Shown here in pieces: positions 19,701-22,535 of a stretch of 64,000 nt of DNA (positions within the stretch are counted from its first letter, which is position 1; each line of letters begins with the position of its first letter). Below the pieces are notes generated by a model that did not search any database, was not told the DNA's origin, and worked only from the letters and a program-made list of their open reading frames with translations. A program made the translations under genes and the position numbers. The DNA is from Rhynchonema sp. JSB1_4 (lineage: Eukaryota; Nematoda; Chromadorea; Monhysterida; Xyalidae), in NCBI GenBank assembly GCA_030248065.1, contig JASAMV010000165.1, forward strand, positions 1 through 64,000, in the 5' to 3' direction.

Positions 19701-22535
19701 TGAACCAATTGTCTACTTTCTGACTCAAAATGAGATCTCGCACAAACTGGGGTCTTTGTGCTTGACTGACCGTTTCTAACTGCATGCGAGTGAAGACTTT
19801 TCAGCTAAAACTGATTGCCAAATGGCCAACCCTTTCTGTCAACAGTTTCAGACGTTTTATGACACGTTTTCGATCAGATACTTTGGGCCATTTTGAACGT
19901 TTGTACTTGGTTGATCTTACCCCCAGCTGTATTCTTGGCTGCCAACTTCACTTTCTCACATCCCGATACAGACTCACCAATTCCGGGTCTGAGCCCGATT
20001 GAGTGCGTGTGGCGTGCAGTATAATTTCCGGACGGAAGGAAACCACAAGTTGTGTGCCTGATGTTTCAGGGAAGAGAACGAATCAGTGGTCCAATTGAAG
20101 GGTCTGACGCCCGGCGGTCTATTACCCTTTGGCGCGTTGTCGCAGGGACGGCGGTCGTTGCAAGAGGGTGTGTGCTTCCTTGATTATTCAGGGTTGTTAG
20201 TTTTAGGCCTCAATTGGGTCCGAAACCAAGTGGCAACATATCAACCGGACATGCGACCCGAAGAGACTAACTTGTGCGGAAATTCCCAACTTACAACACT
20301 GGATGTTTGCAGTGCTCTGCTGTGTGCGTGTTTTAATTTTGTTTTGCCTGTATTTTTTGCACGTTTCCATTTTCTGACGGAATTTATTGTTCGTGTGTGC
20401 CGTGTTTTCCACTTGTCTAATTTGAAGCAGCACTTTCGCATTCGTGTAGCACAAGAGTAAGGAAGCACACCGAGTTTAAGGTCTTTCTTGCACTTTTTCT
20501 GTTCTTGTTTATTTATGTTTTTTTATAATGTGTTGCGTTTGATAGGCACGAGTCGGAGACAGTCGTACAGCTGAAGGGACTGGCCCCCGGTGGAAAATTG
20601 CCCGTTGGCCTGCTCTCAGAGGGCAGGTCCGGTCTGTTGTCATGTAAGTTCGTCTCAACCTTTTTGCTGCCATTTGTGGTAAGTCTGTCGATTGTTTGCT
20701 CAACGTAGTTGTTCTCTCTGAGCAAGAAAACTTGGTGCGATCGGTCATGCCTTGGTCACGTGACTTTTCGGAACTACGGATGTTTTGAGCCACCAATTTC
20801 GACCAACCTAAAACTTGTTCCCCGACTGGAAATGTGAGCAACTTTTCAAACTGATCGAAATTAGTGGCTCTATCTCAAGTTATCCTTGGTGCAAAAGTCA
20901 CGTGTGACCAAAGCAATTCTGATCCGATTACCAAGTTTGATATCGCTGTCTCTGTAGTTTATGGTTTTCTTAATTTTTGCGCCGTCTTGTCTGAATATCA
21001 TTTGTGTGCACATGTTTTGATTTTATTTAACTTTATTCCATTTGATTTGATTGTAATTTGGGAATTTCAATGGCACAAGGTTGGTCTCATTAATCAGTTA
21101 ATTGAGTGATTGTTGATTGGCTGATCGGGCCGCTCTCGTTTCGCGTAGTTTCTGAGCTGGACGTATAAAACTGGTTTCATTTCAAGATCGGACCAAGTTT
21201 GATAGCATTGTTTTGTTGTGTTCGTAACATTGCACAACATGACATGAATGTGTTGTTGCAGCGTTGGAGGGTTCGGACCCAAACACCGAGATTCGCACGT
21301 TCGAGGACGCACGTCGTATGGATAAAATCAATGAACGCGCACCAATCACCATGCAGAGGGAGGTCGAAGAGCACAATGTATGTTGACAATGTTGATGTTT
21401 TTACCACTCGGCACAACACGGCTGGTGGTGATTTTCAACCAGCTAGTGCCGGTAATCTTGTGGTTGTTATGTTACGCATCGTCGGCTCATCGAGGTCACA
21501 TGGTGAGCCCGCGATGCGAGTTGTTTTCTTCACCACCTGAGCCATGCAACGCGAGCTACCCTGTTTCTGAATGAGAAGTGATCCGAAAATATGCGTAGCT
21601 ACGTTTTGTGATAATATATTGAGTGATAAATCCTTTCACAGTGGCAAACATACTCATACTGTATATTCGACATGCTTTGTGGTCACGTGCATTGCATATG
21701 ACGCCCATTTTGTCCACAATGCACATTGCGTTCGCATATAGACCCGAATTCTCGAAAACGCCACCGGGAACGGTTGCGCAGCGGCGTATTTGATGTATCT
21801 TGCGCTCCCCACCTCGGTGCGTAAACTCCCTTGTATTCCAAAAACATACGTGCGTTGAAAAACGCCGCTTTTCGCGTAAGCACGTTACGAATTGAAGTCA
21901 ACCAGCTGGAAGTTGTCATCATCGTGTTTGGGGGCAACCACGGTGGCTTTCGAGAATTTGGGCCATTGAATACGGAAATGTTTCATGTCACCACATCTAT
22001 ACTTGCGTATTTTTCCGCAAAATATATTTTTGGAAAAAAACCGTTTTTTTTCCGAAAAAAAAACCGTTTTTTTTCCAAATATTTTTCCAGTACTTAAGGA
22101 TACCCATGGTCCAAAAACGTCTATTTTGGAGAAAATTTTGTCGGGAAATGGCCTGAAACAGGCTAAAAATGCACTTGGAGATTAAAAAGTGCTCATTTTG
22201 AACTGTTTAGCACCGATTTACATTGGTTTTGACAACATTCTTTCGCAACCTTTGAAAATATTTCGGAAATTTTTGGAAAAAAACCGTTTTTTTCCAAAAG
22301 TTGCCACTTGGAAAAATTTCCGGAAAAATAAAAACGTATTTTTCCGGGCCTCGGAAAAAAACGGTTTTTTTCGGTTTTTTTTTTCGGAAAAAAAACGGTT
22401 TTTTTCCGGCCCGCAAGTATAACCACATCCACATACAGATTAGTGGGCAACTGAACGCAATGCCCTTGTATGTTGCAGGCAGCACTCGCACGCAGCTCAC
22501 CGACTACTCCGCCCAAGGGCTCGACACGTCATTGA
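7702..22535 (+). CDS. Calcineurin A, catalytic subunit of Ca2+/calmodulin-dependent protein phosphatase 2B
   Basis: Serine/threonine phosphatase of calcium signalling, acting in the cytosol with calcineurin B and calmodulin. Coding exons read: 7702-7795, 11657-11733, 12082-12208, 13185-13309, 13942-14053, 14410-14555, 14922-15061, 15242-15319, 15386-15480, 15768-15893, 16162-16239, 18286-18297, 19562-19646, 20070-20167 or 20546-20643, 21262-21377, 22479-22535. All phases agree and give 521 codons, about the normal length. Metal ligands are D103/H105 (GDIHG), D131 (GDYVDRG), N163 (RGNHE), H212 (HGGLSPE) and H294 (RAHEAQDAG); H164 is the acid. The calcineurin-B-binding helix spans exons 10-11, the calmodulin site exon 13 (ARK..IRAIGKMARVFSVLR), the autoinhibitory segment exon 14, and the C-terminal autoinhibitory domain exon 15. 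The ATG was chosen because TERVVK joins exon 2 in phase and matches the family N-terminus. The last exon is the least certain. Confidence 0.95.
7796..11656 (+). other. Calcineurin intron 1 (3.9 kb)
   Basis: Starts with GTACGT and ends TTTTTCAG. No repeats of the families seen elsewhere and no exon of another gene were recognised. A 'ctgt' run lies near 10025-10045. Confidence 0.7.
12290..12884. repeat. Foldback element in calcineurin intron 3
   Basis: Ends are inverted copies: 'ggtcgaaaatcccg' repeated as 'tcccgaaaaaaa' units on the left and 'cgggatttttt' units ending 'aatttcgacc' on the right. It encloses a minisatellite at 12484-12726. Confidence 0.7.
12484..12726 (+). repeat. Minisatellite, unit about 88-90 bp, nearly 3 copies
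   Basis: Each unit begins 'gtcttcctggctggcagcc' followed by 'taagcctaagcctaaccctg' or a close variant. Units differ mainly in the spacer between motifs. Confidence 0.75.
13321..13804. mobile_element. Non-autonomous inverted-repeat element with CCCGACA repeats, in calcineurin intron 4
   Basis: Ends are 'ctagggttagag' and 'ctctaaccctag', flanked by a 6-bp duplication TCACGG (13315-13320 and 13805-13810). The interior has about a dozen 'cccgacacccgacat' units on the left and copies in both orientations on the right. It sits only 11 bp downstream of the exon 4 donor. No coding capacity. Confidence 0.75.
17806..18160. repeat. Dispersed repeat, family E, copy 1 (calcineurin intron 11)
   Basis: Contains 'tccccgcctgcgtg', 'tcaggcacgg' and 'cgctttcagctgttttag', then 'gggcaatttattttcgaaaa'. 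A second, about 80 percent similar copy lies at 50130-50470 in EEP copy 2. Confidence 0.75.
18286..18297 (+). other. 12-nt calcineurin microexon (exon 12)
   Basis: Bounded by TTTAG and a perfect GTAAGT donor. It enters and leaves in phase 1 and adds A-G-T-D between the calcineurin-B-binding helix and the calmodulin-binding region. Exons 11 and 13 are themselves phase-compatible, so the microexon could be included or skipped without a frameshift. Its assignment rests on splice signals and phase, not on conservation. Confidence 0.55.
18311..18330 (+). repeat. GT microsatellite
   Basis: A run of GT dinucleotides just downstream of the microexon donor. Confidence 0.85.
20070..20167 (+). other. 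Calcineurin exon 14a, first alternative autoinhibitory-segment exon
   Basis: 98 nt, entered in phase 2 and left in phase 1, between GTTTCAG and a GTGTGT donor. Encodes VVQLKGLTPGGLLPFGALS with flanking residues, matching the family's autoinhibitory segment directly after the calmodulin-binding helix. It has the same length, phases and position as exon 14b. Confidence 0.88.
20546..20643 (+). other. Calcineurin exon 14b, second alternative autoinhibitory-segment exon
   Basis: 98 nt between GATAG and GTAAGT, same phases as 14a. Encodes VVQLKGLAPGGKLPVGLLS. Counting the shared first residue, 21 of 33 residues match 14a. Joining 14a to 14b creates a stop after nine codons; skipping both also shifts the frame. 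A full-length protein therefore needs exactly one of the two. Confidence 0.88.
21999..22420. repeat. Dispersed repeat, family F, copy 2 (calcineurin last intron)
   Basis: Reverse complement of 1-210, extended by further 'ggaaaaaaacggttttttt' inverted runs. Ends about 55 bp before the last acceptor. Confidence 0.75.

What the first reader, a model, noticed from the sequence alone, without database searches (positions are those of the whole stretch)
20070..20643. Mutually exclusive exons for the calcineurin autoinhibitory segment
Two tandem 98-nt exons have the same entry and exit phases and encode alternative versions of the segment just after the calmodulin-binding helix (LKGLTPGGLLPFG versus LKGLAPGGKLPVG). 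Reading both together gives a stop after nine codons of 14b; skipping both shifts exon 15 and also ends early. Only one-or-the-other yields a full protein. In known calcineurins this segment blocks a substrate-docking groove, so the choice could tune basal activity or calcium response by splicing. Both keep the conserved core but differ at hydrophobic and charged positions (L/K, F/V, A/L). I am not aware of this arrangement being described.
Basis: partly seen in the sequence, partly recalled or inferred. Interest (0 to 1): 0.88.

Follow-up and report, generated by a model that had tools for sequence, protein, structure and literature searches.

The report
Nematode calcineurin's either-or regulatory exons
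A nematode's only detected calcineurin A gene carries two side-by-side versions of one short exon that are predicted to be used one at a time and so to swap the enzyme's likely self-inhibiting linker; what is likely the same exon pair is already described in C. elegans, so this is a further example of a known arrangement rather than a new one.

Summary
Exons 20070-20167 (14a) and 20546-20643 (14b) are both 98 nt with AG/GT flanks and equal phases. Either gives an open 517-aa calcineurin A; both or neither gives an early stop. Both look like maintained coding sequence: 20 of 32 residues identical although 41 of 96 nt differ, reached by 0 of 20,000 neutral simulations. No second calcineurin A was detected. 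The gene tree puts the window among nematodes, outside the sampled Rhabditida.

The claim that this is undescribed is wrong: C. elegans tax-6 exons 13a/13bc are the same arrangement, with neuronal and muscle-enriched isoforms and edited mutants (PMC12503234). 14b groups with other nematode b exons (93/98), but an independent duplication is not rejected (AU p = 0.219).

Two details add something. The exons are equal in length, as in two Panagrolaimus proteins, so a long/short linker is not the general property. And 14a has Asn where 14b keeps the Ser matching C. elegans S443; the mammalian Ser411 site lies in the shared upstream exon and is not switched. No RNA data were available; use is inferred.

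The parts
7702..22535 (+). calcineurin A (PPP3/PP2B catalytic subunit, tax-6-like) coding region: 14 exons in common plus 14a or 14b
   Evidence: model; every internal junction AG/GT; aligned to calcineurin A-alpha 4orb over residues 21-492; no second calcineurin A detected
19562..19646 (+). exon before the pair: end of LR1 and the calmodulin-binding helix (GVPSARKEVIRTKIRAIGKMARVFSVL); holds the Ser that matches mammalian Ser411
20070..20167 (+). alternative exon 14a (a type): EENESVVQLKGLTPGGLLPFGALSQGRRSLQE; Asn at the place of C. elegans S443
20168..20545 (+). 378-nt intron between 14a and 14b; five GTGTG against 0.5 expected by mononucleotide shuffle, one of 27 motif tests, so only suggestive
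20546..20643 (+). alternative exon 14b (b type): HESETVVQLKGLAPGGKLPVGLLSEGRSGLLS; keeps the Ser at the place of C. elegans S443; weak acceptor
21262..21377 (+). exon after the pair: autoinhibitory domain (EIRTFEDARRMDKINERAP)
22479..22535 (+). last coding exon, C-terminal tail and stop
18286..18297 (+). candidate 12-nt optional microexon in LR1 (FE-G-G to FE-AGTD-G-G), same place as short inserts in some other nematode calcineurins
   Evidence: unproven, two AG-(3n up to 30)-GTAAGT frames occur in this intron

Best explanation
The two 98-nt exons are alternative versions of one exon of a nematode calcineurin A gene, likely chosen one at a time by regulated splicing, and the choice is predicted to swap the roughly 33-residue linker between the calmodulin-binding helix and the autoinhibitory domain. 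Shown: both exons are coding-constrained, share phases, and only one-or-the-other keeps the frame. Inferred: mutual exclusion is backed by the frame lock, since both or neither gives a premature stop that would be open to nonsense-mediated decay. Inferred from likely orthology with C. elegans tax-6: 14a is the default, neuron-type linker and 14b, with its weaker acceptor, the muscle-enriched type. Inferred mechanism: the swap retunes how the linker restrains the phosphatase at rest and one of the places where CaM kinase can act on it, because 14b keeps the Ser that C. elegans CMK-1 phosphorylates (VLRHESETVV) and 14a has Asn there (VLREENESVV).
For: Anatomy and frame lock. Purifying selection. 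No second calcineurin A detected. Nematode placement: (the window, nine named nematodes and four rows without a visible organism name form a set of 14 at 100/98; the 8 Rhabditida rows, one of them unnamed, exclude the window at 100/99). Exon tree of 43 rows by 32 columns: all 10 b exons in it, the window's included, on one side of a branch, 93/98, 94% of 200 bootstraps. Over all 193 linker copies counted, H at exon residue 1 occurs in 7, all b type from named nematodes; K at residue 17 occurs in 12, of which 10 are b type and 2 are P0072 and P0079; 14b has both. Order a then b is as in C. elegans. Panagrolaimus proteins P0013/P0121 differ only at residues 448-480 and have equal length. In C. 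elegans 13a makes up at least 98% of neuronal transcripts, 13bc about 65% of muscle transcripts, and CRISPR removal of 13a has phenotypes. CMK-1 phosphorylates TAX-6 S443 in vitro; in P0022 residue 443 is the Ser of RHES. That site's consensus is present in b and absent in a.
Against: No transcript evidence for either junction. The AU test does not reject an independent duplication in the window lineage (p 0.219), and window 14a shares VVQ and PGG with b exons rather than with the Rhabditida a exons sampled. The 14b acceptor is weak. The better-known mammalian CaMKII site, Ser411, matches the Ser of FSVLR in the shared upstream exon (4orb numbering; residue 437 of P0022), so it is kept in both isoforms and not switched. 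Asn at the S443 place occurs in 20 of 193 linker copies, 16 of them from fish, so the loss of Ser may be neutral. Structure predictions failed (mean pLDDT 53 and 51), so nothing was learned about docking.
Confidence: 0.72

Rival explanations
1. Exon 14b is a decaying, unused duplicate and only 14a is spliced in.
For: 14b acceptor is the weakest of the gene's 16 acceptors (-5.3); no RNA data; the closest relative found, P0002, is known only with an a linker.
Against: 20 of 32 residues kept with 14 synonymous-different codons; 0 of 20,000 neutral simulations match. Donor is GTAAGT. Groups with b exons of other nematodes.
Confidence: 0.1
2. The pair arose by a separate duplication in the window's lineage and is convergent with the C. 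elegans pair.
For: AU test does not reject win_a + win_b + P0002 as one clade (lnL 5.46 worse, p 0.219); 14a and 14b share VVQ and PGG.
Against: b exons form one side of a branch at 93/98 and in 94% of bootstraps; 14b shares H1 and K17 with b exons; same order as in C. elegans; no similarity left in the flanking introns.
Confidence: 0.15
3. The point of the pair is the option to skip or double the exon, making calcineurin cut off after the CaM-binding helix (448 aa, no linker or autoinhibitory domain) or after the a linker (469 aa, no autoinhibitory domain), both expected to be hyperactive.
For: Both products follow from the sequence; a C. elegans deletion with a comparable truncation is the gain-of-function allele tax-6(gf).
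Against: Both have premature stops upstream of a further intron and would be expected to be degraded; does not explain why two linker sequences are conserved.
Confidence: 0.08
4. The pair serves to make a long and a short linker, as proposed for LR2 in worms and mammals.
For: In C. elegans 13bc is 21 nt longer than 13a and mammals add a 10-residue exon.
Against: Both exons are 98 nt here and the two Panagrolaimus proteins have the same length.
Confidence: 0.05

Closest known systems
C. elegans tax-6 mutually exclusive exons 13a / 13bc (Rudgalvyte and Glauser 2025, PMC12503234)
   Same: Same gene family, same place between the calmodulin-binding and autoinhibitory exons, upstream exon of REE type and downstream exon of RHES type, likely orthologous.
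   Different: Exons equal in length here, 21 nt apart in C. elegans; the S443 Ser is in both C. elegans exons but only in 14b here; the optional C. elegans exon 11 is 9 nt, the candidate microexon here 12 nt; RNA evidence only in C. elegans.
Panagrolaimus sp. JU765 calcineurin A database proteins P0121 and P0013
   Same: Identical outside one exon-sized block, a-type and b-type linkers, no length change.
   Different: Ser at the S443 place in both; Gln instead of His at the start of the b block; their gene structure was not seen here.
Vertebrate PPP3CA/B/C alternative exon 13 (10 residues, ATVEAIEADE)
   Same: Alternative splicing varies the same linker region.
   Different: Cassette inclusion or skipping, not a swap of homologous exons; sequence unrelated; changes length.
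Calcineurin A-beta-1 (divergent C terminus read from intron sequence)
   Same: Transcript choice changes the autoinhibitory part.
   Different: Replaces the C terminus, removes the autoinhibitory domain and adds an LAVP inhibitory sequence.

Membership tests
Calcineurin A (PP2B/PPP3 catalytic subunit) | PPP catalytic core plus calcineurin-B-binding helix, calmodulin-binding helix and autoinhibitory domain in one chain | tested here: met
   Aligned to calcineurin A-alpha 4orb over residues 21-492, E 6.8e-262
tax-6-type mutually exclusive LR2 exon pair | Two homologous tandem exons between the CaM-binding and the autoinhibitory exon | tested here: met
tax-6-type mutually exclusive LR2 exon pair | Upstream exon of a type, downstream exon of b type, grouping with their counterparts | tested here: inconclusive
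   b exons united at 93/98, 94% of bootstraps; a exons not united (2 changes); independent duplication not rejected, AU p 0.219
tax-6-type mutually exclusive LR2 exon pair | Exactly one of the two exons in each mature mRNA | not testable with these tools
   Frame requires it for a full protein; no RNA reads held
tax-6-type mutually exclusive LR2 exon pair | Long and short linker (stressed for C. elegans; not used here as defining, because the Panagrolaimus proteins also lack it) | tested here: not met
   Both 98 nt; Panagrolaimus proteins equal in length
tax-6-type mutually exclusive LR2 exon pair | CaMK-consensus Ser (S443) in both exons (C. elegans property, not defining) | tested here: not met
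   Present in 14b, Asn in 14a
tax-6-type mutually exclusive LR2 exon pair | Tissue-specific use (neuron a, muscle b) | not testable with these tools
   Reported for C. elegans
Vertebrate LR2 cassette exon | Single optional exon that lengthens the linker | tested here: not met
   Skipping both exons breaks the frame

The most novel reading that the evidence does not exclude
In a nematode outside Rhabditida the calcineurin exon swap is a splice-set switch for kinase feedback: including 14b makes a calcineurin that CaM kinase can phosphorylate just after the calmodulin helix (the C. elegans S443 site), including 14a makes one that it cannot (Asn), with no change in linker length. That would mean the ancient function of the pair is linker chemistry and feedback wiring, not the long/short linker proposed for worms and mammals. 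Odds lowered from 0.3 to 0.25 on checking: the mammalian Ser411 site lies in the shared upstream exon and stays in both forms.
Probability: 0.25. Interest if true: 0.55.

Novelty: new member of a known kind. Interest (0 to 1): 0.36.

Why it matters
The function of the calcineurin LR2 linker is open; the authors of the C. elegans study call it speculative. A likely orthologous pair outside the sampled Rhabditida, equal in length and differing at the S443 phosphosite, separates two ideas that C. elegans alone cannot: length of the linker against its sequence and phosphorylation. If orthologous, it also dates the switch to before the split of this lineage from Rhabditida, which would argue that the two isoforms have long done different jobs.

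Tried and rejected
Species identification: SSU rRNA and COX1 genome searches did not complete. SL1 RNA family: 0 matches, 50 of 52,251 candidates scored, no control genome ringing, so uninformative. SL1 pattern with one mismatch: 0 matches, which does not exclude trans-splicing. Placement therefore rests on the calcineurin tree alone. A recalled guess of Plectus or a similar group was not tested.

Homologue search with a 42-residue region found nothing (too short for that database). Searches (120 of 259 hits listed; 120 of 1040 listed) gave 190 proteins; linker copies were counted in 186 (193 copies), the other four being fish proteins with the REESE form that my motif missed. Eleven copies have the b pattern (not E at residue 1, K or R at 17): ten from named nematodes, one (P0007) with its organism name cut off. 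Unlisted hits were not seen.

For the exon tree I gave 41 of the 193 copies, chosen by hand to cover groups, plus the window's two; one search was the same script stopped by an indexing error. Romanomermis P0079 and unnamed P0072 (EENETV...GKLP) look partly b-like but fell with the outgroups, so whether Dorylaimia have the pair is open.

AlphaFold models of P0002 and P0013 had mean pLDDT 53 and 51 and were not interpreted. RNA duplexes between the introns were no stronger than the strongest shuffles. Splicing-factor motifs: 27 tests, best P 0.003, not significant after correction. Pfam on 10 of the 29 long ORFs listed: nothing.

Papers: PMC12503234 seen as outline, abstract, passages and sections 14 and 15; PMC12043318, PMC11358029, PMC11662586, PMC7456046, PMC8523714 and PMC8583826 as passages. 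The autoinhibitory segment blocking the LxVP groove is recalled; no passage read here shows it directly. That no other paper describes the pair rests in an open-access library, of which part was listed (20 of 40, 15 of 56, 1 of 1, 10 of 15, 6 of 6); the supplementary figures of PMC12503234 were not seen.

Full report
What is there. The window holds a complete calcineurin A gene on the + strand, 7702 to 22535, with AG/GT at every internal junction of the model. In a tree of 41 calcineurin A proteins the window falls in a set of 14 rows at 100/98: itself, nine named nematodes, and four rows without a visible organism name. Its nearest relative is the unnamed JGI protein P0002 (99/93; 89% identity over 427 columns). 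It lies outside the eight Rhabditida rows (100/99; one, P0007, unnamed); NCBI puts Panagrolaimus, Toxocara and Pristionchus in three suborders of Rhabditida and Trichinella in Dorylaimia (the other names are placed from memory). The genome (203.9 Mb) shows no second calcineurin A: the linker/autoinhibitory query matches only 14a, 14b and exon 15 (3 matches), and of 42 matches to a 328-aa catalytic query 9 are this gene's exons (74-98% identity) and 33 lie on other contigs at 31-70%, as expected of other PPP phosphatases (their identity was not tested).

The pair. Exons 20070-20167 and 20546-20643 are each 98 nt, enter in phase 2 and leave in phase 1. Either alone gives 517 aa. Both give nine further residues and a stop (469 aa); neither gives a stop in the shifted exon 15 (448 aa). 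The peptides are EENESVVQLKGLTPGGLLPFGALSQGRRSLQE and HESETVVQLKGLAPGGKLPVGLLSEGRSGLLS.

Are both real? 41 of 96 coding nucleotides differ, yet 20 of 32 residues are the same; neutral simulations average 9.7 and none of 20,000 reach 20. Synonymous sites are near saturation (pS 0.77) while pN is 0.30, and second codon positions changed least (7 against 16 and 18). The flanking 150 nt are no more alike than shuffles, so the duplication is probably old. The 14b donor is GTAAGT, but its acceptor is the weakest of the 16 in this gene on a small matrix: consistent with a regulated exon, or less likely with a failing one.

Is it known? Yes, in C. elegans. Rudgalvyte and Glauser (PMC12503234; outline, abstract, passages and two sections seen; [quoted passage not shown] Deleting 13a changes crawling and heat adaptation. 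They report variants in the same region in other nematodes; the supplementary legend names Caenorhabditis species and Pristionchus.

Is it the same pair? In an exon tree (41 of the 193 linker copies found plus the window's two; 32 columns) the ten b exons, the window's included, are one side of a branch at 93/98, in 94% of 200 bootstraps; the a exons are not united. Over all 193 copies H at residue 1 occurs in 7, all b type; K at residue 17 in 12, ten of them b type, the other two P0072 and P0079. 14b has both. The order is as in C. elegans. But with so few columns a separate duplication in the window's lineage is not rejected (AU p 0.219), and 14a shares VVQ and PGG with b exons. Orthology is likely, not shown.

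What is added. First, length: the C. elegans study proposes that a long and a short LR2 is the widespread theme. Here both exons are 98 nt, and two Panagrolaimus proteins that differ at 17 residues, all within 448-480, have equal length. So the length difference is not a general property of the nematode pair. Second, a CaM-kinase site: C. elegans CMK-1 phosphorylates TAX-6 S443 in vitro (PMC12043318, passages), and residue 443 of the C. elegans protein P0022 is the Ser of RHES. 14b keeps it in a full consensus; 14a has Asn and no consensus, as does the a linker of P0002. Three points weigh against over-reading. Asn occurs there in 20 of 193 copies, 16 of them from fish. The mammalian site Ser411, whose phosphorylation by CaMKII is said to inhibit calcineurin (PMC11358029, passage), matches the Ser of FSVLR in the shared upstream exon (numbering of 4orb; residue 437 of P0022) and is present in both forms. 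And in C. elegans it is the a isoform in neurons, not b, whose S443 seems to matter most, so a loss in a here would be a change of wiring.

How it likely works (inferred). Splicing chooses one linker; the frame lock turns mistakes into truncated messages that would be open to decay; the choice retunes autoinhibition and one kinase site by cell type, with 14a as default and 14b needing activation. None of the functional steps was tested here. Structure prediction failed, and the docking-groove role of the segment is recalled knowledge.

Verdict. Real, well constrained and likely functional, but a new member of a described arrangement. Interest is moderate: it extends the pair beyond the sampled Rhabditida and gives two testable differences.

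Noticed in passing
window 18286-18297: Candidate 12-nt microexon with GTAAGT donor in LR1 (adds AGTD before GGVPSARKE). P0124, P0127, P0130 and P0138 carry short inserts (GSEGG, GSDGG) at the same place and C. elegans has an optional 9-nt exon 11.
   Followed up: partly
database proteins P0001, P0003, P0004, P0005, P0006, P0007, P0010: Seven of the 186 counted proteins contain both linker exons in tandem, joined through a few extra residues, and P0008 (Haemonchus) fuses the head of one to the tail of the other; these look like annotation errors at the exclusive pair.
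   Followed up: partly
P0079 (Romanomermis) and P0072 (unnamed): Linkers EENETV...GKLPIGVLAGGK mix a-type and b-type states, so the pair might reach into Dorylaimia; unresolved.
   Followed up: no
window 13340-13800: Intron filled with repeated 'ccgacacccgacatct'-like units, apparently in both orientations.
   Followed up: no
window 18120-18180 and 22020-22420: Repeats of the form ttttttcggaaaaaaacgg in introns.
   Followed up: no
window 16860-17350: Intron stretch rich in cgatcga/tcgattt-like words.
   Followed up: no
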